Positions 2,047 through 32,205 of a stretch of DNA of 40,586 nt are shown here, piece after piece (the stretch's first letter is position 1; the number at the start of each line of letters is the position of its first letter). Under the pieces are notes generated by a model, which ran no database searches, was not told the origin of the DNA, and saw nothing but the letters and a program-made list of their open reading frames with translations. The position numbers and the translations under genes were made by a program. Source of the stretch: Thermoplasma sp. Kam2015 (GTDB lineage Archaea; Thermoplasmatota; Thermoplasmata; Thermoplasmatales; Thermoplasmataceae); the NCBI RefSeq assembly GCF_003205235.1, contig NZ_QJSM01000025.1, positions 1-40,586 of the forward strand, read 5' to 3'.

Positions 2047-2319
2047 ATTTATAGAGGGGTTAGGAGCTTGAGAAAAGCAGTAAAACCTCTCTTCGGACAG
2101 GAGATACACGAACACCCCTCAATAAAATGAGCTATAAATTATCTTTCCATATTTTTGTATCAGCCATGAGAAACGAGTGTACGATACCTGAGTGGGATAG
2201 GTGCGGACCGAATACGCGCCTGTGGAGATCGCAACATCGGGCTTGTACGGAATATATCCGTACAGGCAGAGATCTCTTCGATGAAAGGAGAAATCGAAGA
2301 TTCAGCTAGGGGCAGCTCA
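2047..2319 (+). mobile_element. MITE-like IS605 derivative, copy 3 (plus orientation)
   Basis: A 273-bp block opens with a left end matching the IS605-type element (ATTTATAGAGGGGTTAGG) and a hairpin-forming stretch. It closes with TTCAGCTAGGGGCAGCTCA, the counterpart of the complete element's right end. Between them lies the relic of the tnpB tail, here nearly identical to the complete element (GCCTGTGGAGATCGCAACAT, then ATATATCCGTACAGGCAGA). The right end overlaps the last codons of the methyltransferase gene that converges on it. The 60-residue open frame inside it is not a gene. Confidence 0.8.
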
Positions 2320-3553
2320 AGCCTTTGCCCTTTTGCATGACAATAATGTGCTCCTTAAGCATCGTACTTGACGTTTCGCCGGATACATTGGTCGGGCTGT
2401 TTCTTAGAGGCATCCTCTTATTTGGTATATCCCTTACAAACGTTGCTATGTGGGCGAATCCCTGCGATTCAAAGAAATCCCGTATCGCGTCTGAGGTGGG
2501 AAGTATTACCGAGGCGACAGTTCTATTGGCTACAACATAGCAGGCATATCCATTTGCTTTCAGGACTCTAGATACGTTTACAATGGAACTAAGAAGGTCA
2601 GCATAGAAGGATGAAACTTCCAAGGCCCTTTCGTAATTCTTATTTGAAACAGCCGATATGGCCTTATTCAAGACCTCTGATGGAAACTCATCTATGCTCT
2701 TAGCCTTAGACCCGCCCATCAGTTTCTTGTCAATATTTCTATCGGTTAGCCCCAGCCATATGGACGAGAATTTAGAGTACTGGCCATAGGCGACGGTGGT
2801 ATGCGAGTCGCCGTATGGCGGAGATGTTATTATTATATCAGCTGAGCCCTCGGGGATATCGCTGTTTGGGATCTCGTTGACCGAGTTGTATGGAAATACC
2901 GATACATGAGGTGGACTGCCGAACGCCGATATCTCTTTCCTAAACTCAATCAGACCCTCGAGGTTCCTCCTCAGCTTCTCCTTAAATATACGAAGAGGAT
3001 CCGGATTCCATGCCTTTAGCCTCTCATCATCGTATCTAAAAATCTTGAACTCGTCTTTCCTTGTGTTTGAACTCTCTCTGACAGTTTCGCTAAAAGCTAC
3101 TTCAAAGAACAGCTTCGTATGCTTATTCTCGATGTTATTTAAAAAATTCCTGATCTTTCCCAGAGAATAGGCAGCTTCTTTCTTGAACCAGAAATCTATG
3201 TTCTTCATTTTCGGGATGTCAGGCTTAAGATCGCTCCACTCGAAGTCGAGCCTGAGCATATGCTCCGATACGGAATTTGGATCTATGTATGGATCCGTCT
3301 TAGCCTCCGCGATAAGCCTCGCCAACGGGTTTAGATCTGTGCCGATGGCGTCTATACCTTTCAGCTCTGCCTCCACAAGGGAGGTACCTGTACCACAGTA
3401 GGGATCGTACAAAAGTCTAGCATTGGAGCCGTACATAGCGAGCAGGCGTTCTGCCACCTGCGGTATCATCCTTGCCGGATAATCATGGTATATATGGGTA
3501 TAGCGCCTCGTATCAGCATCCTTGAATGTCCAGTCCTCCATGCCTTCGATCAT
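2306..3553 (-). CDS. DNA methyltransferase of a type II restriction-modification pair (probably N4-cytosine)
   Basis: The SAM-binding motif I is DPYCGTG (residues 50-56), followed by the acidic loop GTDLNP. The catalytic motif IV is TSPPYG at about 243-248. The order I then IV and the SPPY tetrapeptide point to an amino-methyltransferase, with SPPY favouring N4-cytosine; MvaI-type systems use such enzymes. It protects host sites from the endonuclease encoded just upstream: its ATG (3551-3553) overlaps the endonuclease TGA (3553-3555) by one base, so the two are co-translated. At 415 residues it is full length, but its last residues (LSCP) are encoded by the right end of MITE copy 3, so the native C-terminus was replaced by the insertion. 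Confidence 0.85.
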   Translation of the reverse strand: MIEGMEDWTFKDADTRRYTHIYHDYPARMIPQVAERLLAMYGSNARLLYDPYCGTGTSLVEAELKGIDAIGTDLNPLARLIAEAKTDPYIDPNSVSEHMLRLDFEWSDLKPDIPKMKNIDFWFKKEAAYSLGKIRNFLNNIENKHTKLFFEVAFSETVRESSNTRKDEFKIFRYDDERLKAWNPDPLRIFKEKLRRNLEGLIEFRKEISAFGSPPHVSVFPYNSVNEIPNSDIPEGSADIIITSPPYGDSHTTVAYGQYSKFSSIWLGLTDRNIDKKLMGGSKAKSIDEFPSEVLNKAISAVSNKNYERALEVSSFYADLLSSIVNVSRVLKANGYACYVVANRTVASVILPTSDAIRDFFESQGFAHIATFVRDIPNKRMPLRNSPTNVSGETSSTMLKEHIIVMQKGKGLSCP

Positions 3554-4251
3554 CAGAGAACCTCAGCAGATGCAAAAACCTTCGGTAAATCAGTTGGGTG
3601 CACGCGGAATCCTGTGCCGTGGTTCCTAGCCATTGTTCCGGCGTAATGCAGCCTGAGATCTATTAGTATTATGCCATTTAAGATGCTGTCCCGGATTATA
3701 TCTTTATTTGCTCCTTTATAAAGAATGGCCTTATAGAAATTGAAATATTCTCCATCTATCCTCTCCTCCACCCTAGCATAGACTATGATAATGGCCGGAA
3801 TTTTTTGCTCAAACTGGTTCTGGAGATCATCAAATCGCCATCTTACAATGGTCGAGCCATCTATGTGCCTGACCATGACGTATTGGTCGTCTGCATATAG
3901 GAACAAGCCCGCGTTGTTAGGCCTGAAGCTCATGGTGAAGTATAGCCCCAGCCTGCCGTTTGAGTCAGGCGTTCCATACTTTTTAATGGCTTCTAAAGGA
4001 TCCATCACCCATGCGCCCCTGTTGAACGTAAAAAGGGTAATCATATTGTTGGAATCTTCGCGATGCGCCTTAAGCTCAATGCCATCTATATCTGGCAACG
4101 ATATGTTATTCTCATGGATGCCTAAAAGCGTTTCGAGCGTCATACCTATTCCAGTTGGGCCTTCTCTAAGTGATTTCACATAACCTTTGCTCTGTATCTG
4201 CCTAAAGCGTATTTTGAATTCATTAAGATCCATATATTGCTCGTAATCCAT
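3553..4251 (-). CDS. MvaI/BcnI-like type II restriction endonuclease
   Basis: Protein of 232 residues. GPTGIGMTLETLLGI (about 32-46) followed by LPDIDGIELKAHR (about 53-65) matches the MvaI/BcnI family, with the catalytic D-x-x-x-x-E-x-K arrangement in DIDGIELK. Family members are monomeric nickase-like enzymes cutting CCWGG or CCSGG; the actual site here is unknown. It is first in a two-gene operon with its methyltransferase. Start choice: a TATA-like TTTTAAATTT at 4258-4267 is too close to ATG 4251 but about 29 nt before ATG 4233 (Met7), so a leaderless start at 4233 is equally possible. The pair sits between MITE copies 2 and 3. Confidence 0.85.
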   Translation of the reverse strand: MDYEQYMDLNEFKIRFRQIQSKGYVKSLREGPTGIGMTLETLLGIHENNISLPDIDGIELKAHREDSNNMITLFTFNRGAWVMDPLEAIKKYGTPDSNGRLGLYFTMSFRPNNAGLFLYADDQYVMVRHIDGSTIVRWRFDDLQNQFEQKIPAIIIVYARVEERIDGEYFNFYKAILYKGANKDIIRDSILNGIILIDLRLHYAGTMARNHGTGFRVHPTDLPKVFASAEVL

Positions 4252-4430: not shown

Positions 4431-4704
4431 TGAGCTACTCCTAAGCTAAAGCATCGGAACTTCCTTCCATCGAAGAGACCTCTGCCTCTCCGGACATACG
4501 TAAAAGCCATATATCGCTATAACCACAGGCATGTATTCGGTTCGCAACGATCCTACTCAGTTATCATCCACTTGGTTATCGTGGATGATACAAAAAAATA
4601 TGGGAAGACGATCTATGAATATTTCCATTGAAGGAAGTCCGTGCATCTCCTGTACGAAGAGTGAGTTTTACCACTTCCCTCAAACTCCTGACTTTTTTTG
4701 AAAT
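4431..4704 (-). mobile_element. MITE-like IS605 derivative, copy 2
   Basis: This 274-bp block is in the same orientation as copy 1 and lies head-on to copy 3. The right end TGAGCTACTCCTAAGC starts at 4431, the tnpB-tail relic and the shared central segment (TTATCGTGGATGATAC) follow, and the hairpin-forming left end closes near 4704. It differs from copy 1 at many positions, so neither is a recent copy of the other. With copy 3 it brackets the restriction-modification genes. The remaining 4705-4839 shows nothing recognisable before the next gene's 3' end. Confidence 0.8.
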
Positions 4705-4839
4705 TCAGATAAACCATCTACTTTTTGAATCCTTCTTTGCATCACACTCTCTGCCCGCGTTTTGAGGATTATTCAGGTTCGCAGATCTACTCAACTTTTT
4801 GACTCCAACACCGGCTCGCATTCATAGACACTTTCAGAT

Positions 4840-5820
4840 TCAATCCTCGGAGTCGCCTTCGCTCTCCTTCCTCTTCAGGAATTCCCGATATTCCTCAGGC
4901 AGCCTCTCGCGATTCGTTGAAAGCCATGCGACGATATTGTTAAAGGCCCTAATACGCATCATCTGTATGTCGTAGTAGTTGTCGGTCAGCTGCTTCACCG
5001 CCCAGGACGCTTCATCATCCACCGCCTCAAACGACCCTGGCTGCGGCAGGGGGTATCCATCATCCGTCCGTATGGGTTCGATGGTATGGTTCGGAAGCGT
5101 GGCCTCATAGGGCGTAACCTCCTTGCCGATCCCCCGCATCCATACTACATGGAGGTTCACTAGAAAGCGTTTTTCAACGTAGCGCAGGGCCATCATCCTC
5201 GCATGCCCCTTGTTGATGCCCTCGCGCGACGCATATTCTGCCTTCTTGGCTTCGTACAAGGCCCTGTACTGGGATTTGTCCGCTGAGAGCTTTTCAAAGG
5301 ATGTGGCCACCTTGAACAGCGTTGCCTTGAGCCTGGTGTTCTGGAACACATGGTAGCCGGCCTCATGCCTCATGATGCTCTTTTCCAGCACCGATTTGAC
5401 GATGGGCGCTCCGCATGCCCTGCCCTCGCCGTCCGTATTCGATTCGAGAACAGGACAGGATGCTTTTGGCGATGAAGATATGATCTTGTGGCCATTCGCG
5501 CACTCCATGCGGTAGAACTGTCCGGCGAGGCCGGCGTAGGCGACAAGCATTGACGGCTTCGGGAACCTATCGATCGGCGTGAGCATCGCTATTAGGTTCG
5601 CTGAAAGGATCGGGCCAATGCCCTTGATGTGCTTCAGATAGTGCTCGTAGATGGGCATCTTGGCAACCCAGGGGACGATGGATCTGGAAAGGTTTTCCTC
5701 GGTGTTTTTCAGATCCATGAAGTACTTCAGGATGGGGTCTATGGCCGGATCCGGTGGAACCTTCTTCTCTATGATCCATGTGGCCAGCTTCGCGAATCTC
5801 TTTTCACCATCGTCTTTCAT
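4840..5820 (-). CDS. IS110-type transposase C-terminal domain protein with zinc-ligand-like insert
   Basis: About 326 residues from the preferred start. HIKGIGPILSANLIAML (about 64-80) followed by RFPKPSMLVAYAGLAG (about 85-100) is the helix-hairpin-helix core of the Transposase_20 (IS116/IS110/IS902) C-terminal domain, and NTRLKATLFKVATSF matches the family's following helix. Two things are odd. There is no N-terminal RuvC-like DEDD domain, and an insert after YAGLAG carries Cys107, His111, Cys122 and Cys136, a possible zinc site. The longer frame opens at 5880, but the preceding gene ends at 5831 and ATG 5820 follows a GAGGG, so Met21 is preferred. It is last in an operon with an RHH protein. 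It may be a domesticated DNA-binding or recombination protein rather than a transposase. Confidence 0.65.
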   Translation of the reverse strand: MKDDGEKRFAKLATWIIEKKVPPDPAIDPILKYFMDLKNTEENLSRSIVPWVAKMPIYEHYLKHIKGIGPILSANLIAMLTPIDRFPKPSMLVAYAGLAGQFYRMECANGHKIISSSPKASCPVLESNTDGEGRACGAPIVKSVLEKSIMRHEAGYHVFQNTRLKATLFKVATSFEKLSADKSQYRALYEAKKAEYASREGINKGHARMMALRYVEKRFLVNLHVVWMRGIGKEVTPYEATLPNHTIEPIRTDDGYPLPQPGSFEAVDDEASWAVKQLTDNYYDIQMMRIRAFNNIVAWLSTNRERLPEEYREFLKRKESEGDSED

Positions 5821-5830
5821 GCAAGGTCCC

Positions 5831-6142
5831 TCAACGAATTTCAGCTCCGTCCATGCTGAGTGCAGTATGCGAAGACTCAATGCGGTGCCTGGTCATCTCG
5901 TTCTTCGCCCTCTCCACGACCAGGCGCCTGATCTCGGGATCCTTGACGGATATAGTTGAGAGGTATGCGACGACCTCAAGGAAGCTGTCATCGAAGACGC
6001 CACCGACTGCCCCTATCTCCTTCAGCATTCCGCGCATCTTCACTGAATCGGCCTCGTTGAAGCGCCTGAGGCGGAGGACGTTTCCCGTCTTGGAGACGTA
6101 GACGAGCGAAATTGAGCTTTCGCTCTCAGTTACCTTGATCAT
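5831..6142 (-). CDS. Hypothetical protein, middle gene of the RHH operon
   Basis: About 103 residues from ATG 6142, which has GGAGGAGCAGC directly before it; the frame itself is open 10 codons further upstream. The start lies inside the end of the RHH gene (17-nt overlap), and the stop is 10 nt before the IS110-like gene, so all three should be co-translated. The sequence has an N-terminal beta-rich part (ISLVYVSKTGNVLRLRRF) and a helical, charged C-terminus. No family is recognised. The context suggests an accessory DNA-binding or partner protein of the IS110-like product. Confidence 0.6.
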   Translation of the reverse strand: MIKVTESESSISLVYVSKTGNVLRLRRFNEADSVKMRGMLKEIGAVGGVFDDSFLEVVAYLSTISVKDPEIRRLVVERAKNEMTRHRIESSHTALSMDGAEIR

Positions 6143-6317
6143 GCTGCTCCTCCAGCCTCTCCAGCCTCTCAACCTCGTCGAGCAGCTCCCCTATCACATC
6201 GCCCACAGTTTCAAACGGCTCATAGCCGCCTCGCTTTTTCTTCCATTCGTTCAGCCTCCGGATCGTCTCATCCGGTATCCTATATGCCTTGCTCACCATC
6301 GCTTCCTCCATGTCCAT
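6126..6317 (-). CDS. Ribbon-helix-helix (CopG-like) DNA-binding protein
   Basis: Protein of 63 residues. The segment KAYRIPDETIRRLNEWKKKR is a short beta strand followed by the first helix, and VGDVIGELLDEVERLERLEE gives the second helix and an acidic tail, the usual RHH layout. It is first of three overlapping genes. Two starts are possible: ATG 6317 after GAGGTTG, or ATG 6299 (Met7) after ATGGAGGAAGCG, whose Shine-Dalgarno match is better. It probably binds its own promoter at about 6354. Confidence 0.7.
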   Translation of the reverse strand: MDMEEAMVSKAYRIPDETIRRLNEWKKKRGGYEPFETVGDVIGELLDEVERLERLEEQHDQGN

Positions 6318-6479: not shown

Positions 6480-6600
6480 GTCTAAAATGAATTATAAATC
6501 ATTTATGAATAAAAACGGAAAGAACTGGGTCTGCTGTAAACAAACGGAAAAAAAATTATAGTGAAAAATTTTTGGACAGCCACCCTGCGTTTGCGCCGGT
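6480..6600. other. A/T-rich intergenic stretch with two ACGGAAA repeats, candidate origin
   Basis: Between two transcription units lies an A/T-rich segment holding two direct AAACGGAAA repeats at about 6513 and 6542, several A/T runs, and a G/C-rich flank (6584-6620). It is non-coding in all frames as far as I can judge. An element that carries its own MCM helicase needs an origin, and this is the largest non-coding A/T-rich gap in it. The evidence is weak because no full origin recognition box is visible. Confidence 0.25.
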
Positions 6601-6619: not shown

Positions 6620-6631
6620 TTAATTTATATG
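6620..6631 (+). promoter_or_regulatory. TATA box for the putative RNA gene
   Basis: TTAATTTATATG is a good archaeal TATA match on the plus strand, opposite to the surrounding genes. It predicts transcription from about 6655, exactly where the base-paired segment begins. Confidence 0.5.
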
Positions 6632-6656
6632 AACTCTTAGTAGACCGTTCACTGTG

Positions 6657-6786
6657 GCATGCGCCCAGTGGTGGGGAAAACGTGGCAAATGGACGGTGGG
6701 AAGAGACATGGGAAAACGAACAAGCTTTGACGGACCCGCCCTGTCACCCCTTCCTCGCTGAAGGCTGGGACTCATGCTCAATTTTT
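6657..6786 (+). ncRNA. Putative structured non-coding RNA, about 130 nt
   Basis: A TATA box ends 26 nt upstream and a T-run (ATTTTTCC, 6781-6788) follows, so this looks like a complete small transcription unit in a gap without a credible gene. The ends pair: GCATG 6657-6661 with CATGC 6773-6777, then CCCAG 6664-6668 with CTGGG 6765-6769. Inside, GGTGGG (about 6695-6700) pairs with CCCGCC (about 6735-6740). G-rich and GGGAAAACG-type loops remain unpaired. It is not recognisable as RNase P RNA, SRP RNA or a box C/D guide. It is transcribed toward the 3' end of the ATPase gene. Possible roles are control of replication or copy number, or a guide RNA for the neighbouring IS110-like protein. Confidence 0.5.
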
Positions 6787-6789
6787 CCG

Positions 6790-7659
6790 TCAGGCATTCT
6801 TCTTGCTTTTCTGCGCCTTCCGGATGGCTTCGCTCTCCTTCCTGTCCATCTCCTCTGCGACCCTGTTGAATATATCATCGCCCACGTCAGCGCTCTTCAT
6901 GCTGTCTGCCTTTGCCTTCGCCTTGGGACGCCCCCTGCCCGACACCTTCTCCAGAATGCGGTCGAAGTACGTGTCTGTATATTCTGCTGCGACCTGCTCT
7001 ATCCTCTCGTAGAACGGGGTGAGGTACGCATCCTTCTTAGCCTCGTAGGCTGAAGAAAGGTAAGCCGGTGGCATTGGGAGGACTATGCGCTTCTTGATCT
7101 CCTTCACAATGCCCTCCCTGTAATGCCTTACTATGACCGGGTACTTGAACCAGCTGCGCGGGTCGTTCTTGTCCGGCGAGGGGCTAAGCAGGAACGGCTT
7201 GAAGGTCCCGCGCACCCTTGTGGCCTCAAGCACCAGCTGTATGAGCTCCCTTGAACGCTTCGTGATGCTGGGCAGCGAAGGCACGGTGTAAAAGACGATG
7301 AGGTTCCTGTACCTCATGGTCTCGGATACCTTTCCGAACAGTATCAGCTCCTTGCTCTGCCACTCCTGGCTGTCTATGCCCTGACCGGCCTCATCGAATA
7401 CTATGACCGTTCCGGGCGGTGGCCTTGAGTTCAGTATCTTCAGGAACTCGGGGATGGAGAATACCACGTTGTCTACGGTGAAGTTCCTATCGACGAGGTA
7501 GGCAAGGCTCAGGGCCCCGTACGATTTGCCAGACCCCGGCTGTCCTATGAATACGACGTTGATAGGCCTCTTCTCTATCCTCCTTTGGTGTATCCAGCGG
7601 AGGATCCATACGTCCTTCCATGATGCACCGCTTATGCCCTCATAGCCGCCTTCATCCAT
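6790..7659 (-). CDS. P-loop ATPase (DNA packaging, transfer or secretion type)
   Basis: About 289 residues from ATG 7659. Walker A is GQPGSGKS (residues 39-46) and Walker B is TVIVFDEAG (about 84-92). A further conserved-looking stretch, FYTVPSLPSITKRSRELI, follows like a sensor region. The C-terminus is long, basic and helical (GRGRPKAKAKAD). The general layout recalls Zot/FtsK-HerA-type ATPases of viruses and conjugative elements; exact family unknown. The open frame extends 21 codons upstream, but ATG 7659 overlaps the previous stop (7652-7654) and is preceded by GGTGA. It is the last gene of the structural operon, as expected for an assembly or DNA-translocation motor. Confidence 0.75.
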   Translation of the reverse strand: MDEGGYEGISGASWKDVWILRWIHQRRIEKRPINVVFIGQPGSGKSYGALSLAYLVDRNFTVDNVVFSIPEFLKILNSRPPPGTVIVFDEAGQGIDSQEWQSKELILFGKVSETMRYRNLIVFYTVPSLPSITKRSRELIQLVLEATRVRGTFKPFLLSPSPDKNDPRSWFKYPVIVRHYREGIVKEIKKRIVLPMPPAYLSSAYEAKKDAYLTPFYERIEQVAAEYTDTYFDRILEKVSGRGRPKAKAKADSMKSADVGDDIFNRVAEEMDRKESEAIRKAQKSKKNA

Positions 7660-8119
7660 CAATCTCGTCACCCGCCATGTTCTCTGGTTCATCGTCGCTC
7701 GATGGACCGCTGTCGCCGTCAACTGGCGGCAGCCTCATATCGCTTGAGAGGACATCGCTCGTTGAGAGCACCACATCCTCGCCTATGTATCCCATGGTCT
7801 TCATCAGCGCTGTGATCTGCCCGAACCACATCATGAGGTAATGCAGGTACTTCCACCTGAATTTATAGAAGTTTACCTCTATAAGCGGCTCTACCTGCTT
7901 GAGCTGATGGTATATAGAGGAGAGCTTGGTCTGATAGTTCATCTGCGCATAGGTGCCGGACATGTTGGGCGTATTCTCCACTATGGCCATCAGCATAGTA
8001 TGCAGCTGGACGATGCTTATCAGGTTCTGCTCCAGCTGCTCTGGTGAAGGATCCCTGTTCCTAAGCGTGTCTGAGAGGCTGTAGTAGAGAGCAAGGACCG
8101 GATCTTTGGCGTCAACCAC
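7652..8119 (-). CDS. Hypothetical helical protein
   Basis: 155 residues starting at GTG 8119, which has a strong GGAGGAGGTGAGGAA ahead of it. It begins 4 nt after the previous stop and overlaps the ATPase start. The body is alpha-helical with aromatic-rich helices (YKFRWKYLHYLMMWFGQ, about 86-102). The C-terminal 35 residues are acidic and probably disordered. No signal peptide or clear membrane helix. Position next to the ATPase suggests an adaptor or structural partner, but no family is recognised. Confidence 0.7.
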   Translation of the reverse strand: MVDAKDPVLALYYSLSDTLRNRDPSPEQLEQNLISIVQLHTMLMAIVENTPNMSGTYAQMNYQTKLSSIYHQLKQVEPLIEVNFYKFRWKYLHYLMMWFGQITALMKTMGYIGEDVVLSTSDVLSSDMRLPPVDGDSGPSSDDEPENMAGDEIDG

Positions 8120-11257: not shown

Positions 11258-12609
11258 ATTTAAAAGAGAAGTTAGGGGTTTGGGGGAAGCTGTAAATCTC
11301 AACCTCTTCGTACAAGAGATACACGGACTTCCCTCAATGGAAATATTTATAAACAATTTACCATACTTATAGATAGTGATAACAGCCACCAAAGTGAAGC
11401 TGTATCCAAACGAAGGACAGAAAATTTTACTGGAGAAGCACTTTGGCAGCTGTAGATTCGTATACAATTATTTCTTAGCGAAGAGGGACGAATACTATAT
11501 AACGCATAGGGATGCTAAAAAATCCTCTTTAAACTATTTAGACACACAGAACATGCTCATCGATCTAAAGAAGGAATATCCATGGCTGTACGAGATCAAC
11601 GCCCAATCACTTCAGATGTCTCTACGTTTCTTAGACAATGCATTCAAGAACTTCTTTCATAAGAATGCAGATCATCCAAGATTCAAAAAGAAAGGTATTA
11701 ACGAATACTTTGCAGTACCACAGCACATAAAAATTCAAGGAAACAGGATCTATTTCCCAAAGTTCTCTGAAGGCATATACTTCAAGGGATCTAGAGAGAA
11801 ACTTTCAAAGATCAAAGACGTCAACGAGATAATAATAACAAAGGATTCAGGATACTACTACTGTTCCATAATATATGAGATACCAGAAGAGTTCCCAGAG
11901 AAGAAACCATTATCTGAAGAGAACTCCGTTGGCATAGATCTAGGCATCGAGAAGTTCGCAACATTATCGGATGGAACAGTGATAGAGAATCCAAGGTTCA
12001 TAAAGAAGATAGAAAAAAGAATAAGACGATTACAAAAACAGTTATCAAGAAAGCAGAATGGATCGAAGAATAGAAGGAAGCATATACTTAAATTACAGAA
12101 GGAGTATATGAAGATCAGGAATATGCGTGAAGACTTCGATGATAAAATATCGACTGCGATAGCCAAGCGGTACGATACCATCGTCATCGAAGATCTGAAC
12201 GTATCAGGCATGTTTAGAAACCACCATATTGCAAAGAGTCTAAGTGATGTTTCTTTCTATTCCTTCAAGCAGAAACTGGAATGGAAAGCAGAAAAATATG
12301 GAAAGAATATAATAGAGATAGGAAGATTCGATCCATCATCTAAGATATGTTCAAGATGCGGTAACATAAAGCATGATCTGAAGTTATCAGATCGCATATA
12401 TCATTGTGATGTATGTGGTCTCATCATAGACAGGGATCTGAATGCCGCCAAGAACATAAGGAAAATTGGACTTATAAAAGTAGGGCTGGTGCAGTCCGAA
12501 CTTACGCCTGTGGAGATCGCAACATCGGGCTTGTATGGAATATATCCGTACAGGCAGATGTCGGTCGTTGAATCAGGAAGCTCCGAAGCTTCAGCTTAGG
12601 AGTAGCTCA
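11258..12609 (+). mobile_element. Complete IS605-type element (IS1341 group, TnpB only)
   Basis: About 1350 bp bounded by the ends shared with the three MITE copies. The left end ATTTAAAAGAGAAGTTAGGG is followed by a hairpin (GGGGGAAG pairing with CTTCCCTC around an inner CTCTT/AAGAG stem), and the right end is GCTTAGGAGTAGCTCA. It has no terminal inverted repeats and no tnpA, so any movement would need TnpA in trans. It is inserted between the giant surface gene and the small membrane gene, opposite to the operon, so it probably affects read-through. TTTAAAT-like sequences in its left end could drive the downstream genes. Confidence 0.85.
11376..12599 (+). CDS. tnpB: TnpB RNA-guided nuclease of the IS605-type element
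   Basis: 407 residues from GTG 11376. The N-terminal OrfB helix-turn-helix region (KVKLYPNEGQKILLEKHF) is followed by the split RuvC nuclease: GIDLGIEKFATLS with the first Asp (~187), VIEDLNVSGM with the Glu (~271), the zinc ribbon CSRCG...CDVCG (~325-345), and DRDLNAAKN with the last Asp (~352). All catalytic residues are present. TnpB proteins cut DNA guided by an RNA made from the 3' end of the element. The tail after the last Asp (PVEIATSGLYGIYPYRQM) overlaps the region kept in the MITEs, which fits a guide-RNA scaffold there. Confidence 0.92.
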   Translation: MITATKVKLYPNEGQKILLEKHFGSCRFVYNYFLAKRDEYYITHRDAKKSSLNYLDTQNMLIDLKKEYPWLYEINAQSLQMSLRFLDNAFKNFFHKNADHPRFKKKGINEYFAVPQHIKIQGNRIYFPKFSEGIYFKGSREKLSKIKDVNEIIITKDSGYYYCSIIYEIPEEFPEKKPLSEENSVGIDLGIEKFATLSDGTVIENPRFIKKIEKRIRRLQKQLSRKQNGSKNRRKHILKLQKEYMKIRNMREDFDDKISTAIAKRYDTIVIEDLNVSGMFRNHHIAKSLSDVSFYSFKQKLEWKAEKYGKNIIEIGRFDPSSKICSRCGNIKHDLKLSDRIYHCDVCGLIIDRDLNAAKNIRKIGLIKVGLVQSELTPVEIATSGLYGIYPYRQMSVVESGSSEASA

Positions 12610-31971: not shown

Positions 31972-32205
31972 TCAAAATTTTTTAAAGCCGTATTTTCGGG
32001 CTTCCAAGAATTTCACACTATTGTGAAATTCGATCGATATCACAATAGTGTGAAATTCATTTTTAATTGCGGAGCCAGTTCTATAGCCGTTCTGTATGAA
32101 AAAGCCGTTGGAGGGTGATGGGAATTTCACAGCACTGTTAAATTCACTTTTATCTACATAGAACGGCTGCGCCGTGCAATCATATTCTGGTCTTCCGCTG
32201 TTCAT
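31972..32205 (-). CDS. Doubtful 77-residue frame containing operator repeats
   Basis: The ATG overlaps the MCM stop (ATGA), as for many true genes here. But the frame runs through three copies of a palindromic motif that spell EFHTIV, EFHNSVKF and EFNSAVKF in the product, and no fold is recognisable. Either the DNA is a regulatory region that happens to stay open, or coding and operator functions overlap. I favour the regulatory reading. Confidence 0.35.
   Translation of the reverse strand: MNSGRPEYDCTAQPFYVDKSEFNSAVKFPSPSNGFFIQNGYRTGSAIKNEFHTIVISIEFHNSVKFLEARKYGFKKF
32008..32058. promoter_or_regulatory. Large perfect inverted repeat (19-bp arms)
   Basis: GAATTTCACACTATTGTGA (32008-32026) is followed after 13 nt by its exact reverse complement (32040-32058). 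The left arm with its flank is itself a 24-bp dyad, GAATTTCAC-N6-GTGAAATTC (32008-32031). Two operators for a dimer would thus stand back to back. A cruciform is possible, but repressor or partition-protein binding is the simpler reading. Confidence 0.8.
32122..32145. promoter_or_regulatory. Third copy of the 24-bp operator-like dyad
   Basis: GAATTTCAC-AGCACT-GTTAAATTC repeats the dyad at 32008 with one mismatch in the right arm. It lies 64 nt from the inverted repeat, in the same unusual frame after MCM. Confidence 0.65.

What the first reader, a model, noticed from the sequence alone, without database searches (positions are those of the whole stretch)
6620..6788. Complete orphan RNA gene with TATA box, paired ends and U-run
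The gap between two operons contains a plus-strand TATA box, a ~130-nt G/C-rich segment whose termini pair (GCATG/CATGC, CCCAG/CTGGG) with an internal GGTGGG/CCCGCC stem, and a terminal T-run. It is not a known stable RNA that I can recognise. It lies between the ATPase and an operon with an IS110-like protein.
Basis: partly seen in the sequence, partly recalled or inferred. Interest (0 to 1): 0.72.

Follow-up and report, generated by a model that had tools for sequence, protein, structure and literature searches.

The report
Possible RNA gene beside TIGR-Tas operon
A 131-letter stretch in a mobile element of an acid-loving archaeon looks like a small hairpin RNA gene but has no known relatives to prove it, while the nearby "IS110-like" gene turns out to be a TIGR-Tas RNA-guided protein with its own short guide array.

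Summary
The TATA box, paired ends and T-run exist as described. The predicted start (6653/6654), hairpin base (6656/6778) and T-run (6782-6786) fit tightly. Of 129 TATA-to-T-run pairs in 280 kb of this genome it is the most completely paired, and no frame looks coding. It is single-copy, with no homologue in Rfam, the order, a class sample, phages, plasmids or related elements. A real RNA gene is plausible, not shown; covariation cannot be tested. Favoured mechanism: a plus-strand hairpin RNA convergent with the ATPase operon that insulates it from the next operon.

The firmer result is the neighbour. The "IS110-like" protein is a TIGR-associated TasA: it passes the NCBIfam TIGR-Tas cut-off and its ten best structure matches are all TasR/TasH. 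Just downstream lies a short 37-nt-period dual-repeat array with TGCGAGCC/TGCGAACC; the same 8-mer recurs in 36-nt arrays beside TasA relatives in viral contigs. The finding's RNA has neither period nor repeat, so it is not a dual-repeat guide array; a stem-loop guide is unlikely but not excluded.

The parts
6620..6633 (+). TATA-box-like motif TTAATTTATATGAA of the candidate RNA gene
   Evidence: Score 4.5 bits with a matrix trained on 192 gene starts of this genome; same matrix predicts a start at 6653/6654
6653..6786 (+). Candidate small RNA, one long irregular hairpin
   Evidence: Pairs 6656-6661/6773-6778, 6663-6669/6764-6771, 6670-6678/6751-6759, 6682-6687/6742-6747, mostly above 0.9 probability; first of 129 for closed pairing; no coding signal
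6782..6786 (+). T5 run, candidate terminator, three bases after the hairpin
   Evidence: Sequence
6790..7722 (-). Zot-like P-loop ATPase gene, convergent with the candidate RNA
   Evidence: No Pfam hit of its own; relatives match Zot; homologues in 24 of 117 genomes of the order
6126..6317 (-). First gene of the tasA operon, 63 aa, ribbon-helix-helix-like by eye
   Evidence: Coding-like codon usage; no Pfam match
5831..6172 (-). Second gene of the tasA operon, 113 aa, unknown
   Evidence: ORF; no family match
   Evidence: NCBIfam NF052498 108.1 bits, cut-off 100; PDB 9mty E 1.7e-14; top ten Foldseek hits TasR/TasH
4702..4839 (-). Short dual-repeat TIGR array, period 37: edge repeats TGCGAGCC 4820-4813, TGCGAACC 4783-4776, TGTGATGC 4746-4739; loop repeats GTCAAAAAG 4803-4795, CTCAAAACG 4766-4758, TTCAAAAAG 4729-4721
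   Evidence: Lag-37 autocorrelation z 4.4; 13 invariant columns over three rows, maximum for lags 35-38 in window and 240 kb chromosome; same TGCGAGCC repeat in L132/L135 arrays
4592..4598 (-). T7 run, possible terminator of the tasA-array transcript
4539..4546 (-). Lone further edge-repeat copy TGCGAACC

Best explanation
The stretch is a small non-coding RNA gene of an integrated mobile element in a Thermoplasmatales-type archaeon. TBP/TFB at 6620-6633 would start RNA polymerase at about 6653/6654; a rod-shaped hairpin of about 131 nt is made and transcription stops at T5 (6782-6786), just before the stop codon of the convergent ATPase gene. It is the only plus-strand unit recognised in a gene array otherwise read on the minus strand (a TnpB insertion and the integrase end apart), so its likeliest action is in cis: a convergent counter-transcript that limits read-through of the ATPase operon into the RHH-tasA-TIGR operon. 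Shown: the anatomy, the unusual degree of end-to-end pairing, the absence of coding signal, single copy. Inferred: transcription, termination, function.
For: Start, hairpin base and T-run coincide within 3 nt; the same promoter offset is compatible with a tRNA-Val 5' end (one of three overlapping TATA matches there); first of 129 TATA/T-run pairs for closed pairing; 0 of 1000 shuffles equal its spanning pairs; plus-strand fold better than minus-strand or DNA fold; non-coding codon usage in all frames.
Against: Fold energy only modestly below shuffles; mediocre TATA box; no homologue anywhere searched, including 22 loci of related elements; no transcript data. The cis role rests only on position and orientation.
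Confidence: 0.36

Rival explanations
1. Chance: a G+C-rich spacer between two operons that happens to fold into a long hairpin between a TATA-like word and a T-run. No RNA gene.
For: Energy z -1.2 to -2.2 only; TATA-like words this good occur at about 2.6% of gap positions; no homologues.
Against: Extent of end-to-end pairing and its fit to predicted start and T-run are rare.
Confidence: 0.36
2. Minus-strand element: 3' untranslated region of the ATPase operon or regulatory region of the tasA operon. The inverted repeat serves mRNA stability, termination or protein binding there.
For: ATPase transcripts must cross this stretch, and a T8 lies beyond it at about 6548-6555 on the minus strand; related elements keep operator-like repeats just after the ATPase stop codon.
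Against: Minus-strand fold is no better than shuffles (z +0.3 to +0.6); the repeats of relatives are not found here.
Confidence: 0.13
3. Guide or partner RNA of the adjacent TasA protein: a single stem-loop tigRNA-like transcript supplementing the short dual-repeat array.
For: TasA is two genes away; some TasA clades use stem-loop arrays (PMC12045711); on the minus strand CCA-N9-TG occurs twice (P 0.015, post hoc); GGGAAAACG recurs at 36 nt.
Against: No lag 36/37 periodicity, no match to the local TGCGARCC repeat, no pair of 8-12-nt unpaired spacers in the fold; tasA already has its own array; the 36-nt word repeat is not significant (P 0.085); plus strand has no CCA-N9-TG.
Confidence: 0.1
4. 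A short protein gene: GTG 6654 (35 aa) or ATG 6659 (23 aa) on plus, or ATG 6775 (51 aa) on minus.
For: GTG 6654 lies at the leaderless spacing from the TATA box; the frames are open.
Against: Codon usage of these frames lies in the lowest 1% of coding segments of the element; open frames of this length are expected by chance at this G+C content.
Confidence: 0.05

Closest known systems
TIGR-Tas systems (TasA with TIGR array; Faure et al., PMC12045711)
   Same: The neighbouring operon encodes a solo-Nop Tas protein followed on the same strand by edge and loop repeats at 37 nt; found in mobile elements
   Different: The finding's RNA has its own promoter on the opposite strand, no period, no edge/loop repeats and no dual spacers; the array itself is short and degenerate
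IS110 bridge RNAs (PMC11208160)
   Same: A structured RNA of more than 100 nt near an IS110-related protein
   Different: Protein lacks the N-terminal nuclease domain and fails the IS110 model; RNA is on the opposite strand, separated by two genes, and has no two guide loops
Convergent or antisense RNAs of archaeal mobile elements (from general knowledge)
   Same: Small RNA from a mobile element, transcribed against an operon
   Different: It stops before the ATPase coding region, so it would be antisense only to the untranslated end; no replication gene overlaps it

Membership tests
TIGR-Tas (protein 4840-5820) | Nop-domain Tas protein by sequence | tested here: met
   NF052498 108.1 bits against cut-off 100; IS110 model 30.9 against 140
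TIGR-Tas (protein 4840-5820) | Tas fold | tested here: met
   First ten Foldseek matches are TasR/TasH, probability 1.00; model mean pLDDT 70
TIGR-Tas (protein 4840-5820) | Adjacent dual-repeat array of about 36-nt units | tested here: met
   Three to four 37-nt units with TGCGARCC and A-rich repeats directly downstream; short and degenerate. Controls L132, L135, L143, L147 are positive
TIGR-Tas (protein 4840-5820) | Box D 'UG' and box C 'CCA' shared by edge and loop repeats | tested here: inconclusive
   Edge repeat starts TG and ends CC; the loop repeat does not show the same boxes
TIGR-Tas (protein 4840-5820) | Array processed to guide RNAs bound by Tas | not testable with these tools
   Needs pull-down and RNA sequencing
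TIGR dual-repeat array (RNA 6653-6786) | About 36-nt periodicity with edge and loop repeats | tested here: not met
   Best autocorrelation in the gap z 2.0, at lag 43; no TGCGARCC within one mismatch
TIGR stem-loop array (RNA 6653-6786) | Hairpin holding two 8-12-nt spacers flanked by C/D boxes | tested here: not met
   Predicted internal loops are 3 nt or shorter below the apex; plus strand has no CCA-N9-TG; minus strand has two, weak
IS110 bridge RNA | Full IS110 recombinase and RNA in the element's non-coding end on its strand | tested here: not met
   Only the C-terminal Transposase_20 region is matched; RNA candidate is on the opposite strand, two genes away
Rfam families | Covariance-model match | tested here: not met
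   None at gathering threshold; best relaxed match E 2, chance
Stand-alone archaeal small RNA gene | Promoter, structured body, terminator | tested here: inconclusive
   All three present; promoter mediocre, fold energy weak, closed pairing rare
Stand-alone archaeal small RNA gene | Conserved structure with compensatory changes | not testable with these tools
   No homologue in the order or sampled class, nor among 22 related-element loci
Stand-alone archaeal small RNA gene | Transcript | not testable with these tools

The most novel reading that the evidence does not exclude
The hairpin RNA is a partner or guide of the nuclease-less TasA protein: a TIGR system that uses both a dual-repeat array and a separate, independently transcribed long stem-loop RNA, between tigRNAs and IS110 bridge RNAs.
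Probability: 0.1. Interest if true: 0.75.

Novelty: new member of a known kind. Interest (0 to 1): 0.36.

Why it matters
If transcribed, it would be a structured RNA of an archaeal integrative element belonging to no known family, sitting next to a TIGR-TasA locus whose natural role is unknown. The locus itself places a solo-Nop TasA with a minimal array in a Thermoplasmatales-type mobile element; it is the only match over the family cut-off in 117 genomes of the order, and a small system in which TasA function could be tested.

Tried and rejected
Rfam at gathering and at relaxed threshold: nothing. blastn in own genome, 117 genomes of the order, a sample of 400 of the class, phages and plasmids: only chance-length matches. 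A covariance model built from the single sequence: only itself. Exact 22-mer in viral contigs: none. Gaps after the ATPase in relatives hold operator-like GGCATG/TGTCC repeats and promoters, not a homologous RNA. Coding in any frame: rejected. H/ACA and box C/D snoRNA: no terminal ACA and no RUGAUGA box, by reading. Packaging-RNA-like partner of the ATPase: rejected because ATPase relatives lack it. MITE: single copy, no clear target-site duplication. Spacer targets of the TIGR array: none convincing in the sequence held. Attachment-site repeat between the element ends: no shared word of 11 bases or more. Viral-contig searches for the ATPase and for TasA by single protein or two-row alignment found nothing. 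Alignment A4, which did find TasA relatives, contains one hand-made consensus row used only as a search aid; matches were confirmed by tblastn against the window protein.

Full report
Setting. The window is contig C25 of a 1.79-Mb archaeal genome. Its ATPase relatives in named genomes are Ferroplasma, E-plasma and other Thermoplasmatales or Thermoplasmata. From about 2.3 to 34 kb the genes run almost wholly on the minus strand: restriction-modification, MCM, a TFB-like factor, membrane proteins, a giant repeat protein and a Zot-like ATPase; an integrase fragment lies at 1708-2037. This looks like an integrated mobile element.

Observation. The internal GGTGGG/CCCGCC stem has about 6% probability; other pairs are used there. 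A promoter matrix trained on 192 gene starts of this genome puts the motif 33-34 nt before leaderless starts. The predicted start is therefore 6653/6654, two or three bases before the base of the hairpin. The same offset is compatible with the 5' end of a tRNA-Val (one of three overlapping TATA matches there).

Is it more than chance? Energy alone is weak: z -1.2 to -2.2 depending on trimming. End-to-end pairing is stronger: none of 1000 shuffles equals 40 spanning pairs with closed ends, though 4.7% reach 30. Across 129 TATA/T-run pairs in the window and 240 kb of chromosome the candidate ranks first for fraction of spanning pairs and leaves only 3 end bases open. The minus-strand and single-strand DNA folds are ordinary, which favours a plus-strand RNA if anything. 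All frames have non-coding codon usage.

Comparative evidence is missing. Nothing was found in Rfam, in the own genome beyond itself, in 117 genomes of the order by blastn and by covariance model, in 400 genomes sampled from the class, in phages and plasmids, or in 22 related loci. ATPase relatives, about 30-42% identical, have different sequence after the ATPase stop codon. Compensatory change can therefore not be tested.

The neighbour. The IS110-like protein passes the NCBIfam TIGR-Tas model (108.1 bits, cut-off 100) and fails the IS110 model (30.9, cut-off 140). phmmer finds the TasR structure 9mty in two stretches, and a five-sequence AlphaFold2 model (mean pLDDT 70) matches TasR and TasH structures in its first ten hits, probability 1.00. 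No nuclease domain was detected, so it is TasA-like in the terms of PMC12045711. Twenty bases after its stop codon begins a 37-nt periodic stretch with edge repeats TGCGAGCC, TGCGAACC, TGTGATGC and A-rich loop repeats GTCAAAAAG, CTCAAAACG, TTCAAAAAG. Lag-37 autocorrelation is z 4.4. Thirteen of 37 columns are invariant over three rows, more than elsewhere at lags 35-38 in the window or in 240 kb of chromosome. TasA relatives in viral contigs (L132, L135, L143) and in Microcystis phage Mvi-JY20 (L147) have plain 36-nt arrays directly downstream, and L132/L135 use the same TGCGAGCC. [quoted passage not shown]

Does the finding's RNA belong to the TIGR system? The tests say no for a dual-repeat array: no periodicity and no repeat match. 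A stem-loop guide is not supported by the fold, though one weak minus-strand pattern (CCA-N9-TG twice, P 0.015, post hoc) keeps the possibility open.

Conclusion. A genuine small RNA gene, acting as a convergent counter-transcript between the ATPase operon and the TIGR-TasA operon, and plain chance are about equally likely on this evidence. RNA sequencing would decide. The secure result is the identification of the TasA gene and its short array.

Noticed in passing
4592-5820 (minus): The 'IS110-like' gene is a TIGR-associated TasA protein followed by a short, degenerate 37-nt dual-repeat array with a possible T7 terminator; a lone further edge repeat lies at 4539-4546. It carries a cysteine-containing insertion not aligned in the viral relatives.
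   Followed up: yes
L132, L135, L143, L147 (downstream of the tas genes): Clear 36-nt TIGR arrays directly downstream of TasA-like genes in IMG/VR viral contigs and in Microcystis phage Mvi-JY20, where the gene is annotated as hypothetical.
   Followed up: partly
31995-32145: Two perfect-looking palindromic copies built on GAATTTCACACTATTGTGAAATTC and a diverged third, between MCM and the next gene; fold z below -6. Possibly an operator or replication origin.
   Followed up: no
11376-12599 (+): TnpB-family RNA-guided endonuclease gene inserted on the opposite strand, without a TnpA seen beside it.
   Followed up: no
L018-L026, L038, L040, directly after the ATPase stop codon: Clusters of GGCATG-like (or TGTCC, ATGGGA) repeats at about 11-bp spacing, plus one near a conserved TATTATTATATA, differing between elements: operators with changing specificity.
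   Followed up: no
2306-4251 (minus): MvaI/BcnI-type restriction enzyme next to an N6/N4 DNA methylase: a restriction-modification pair in the same element.
   Followed up: no
chromosome contig C18, about 184971-185180 (locus L055): Two TATA-to-T-run stretches with fold z below -6 and no Rfam match at gathering threshold; stronger structured-RNA or terminator candidates by energy than the finding.
   Followed up: no
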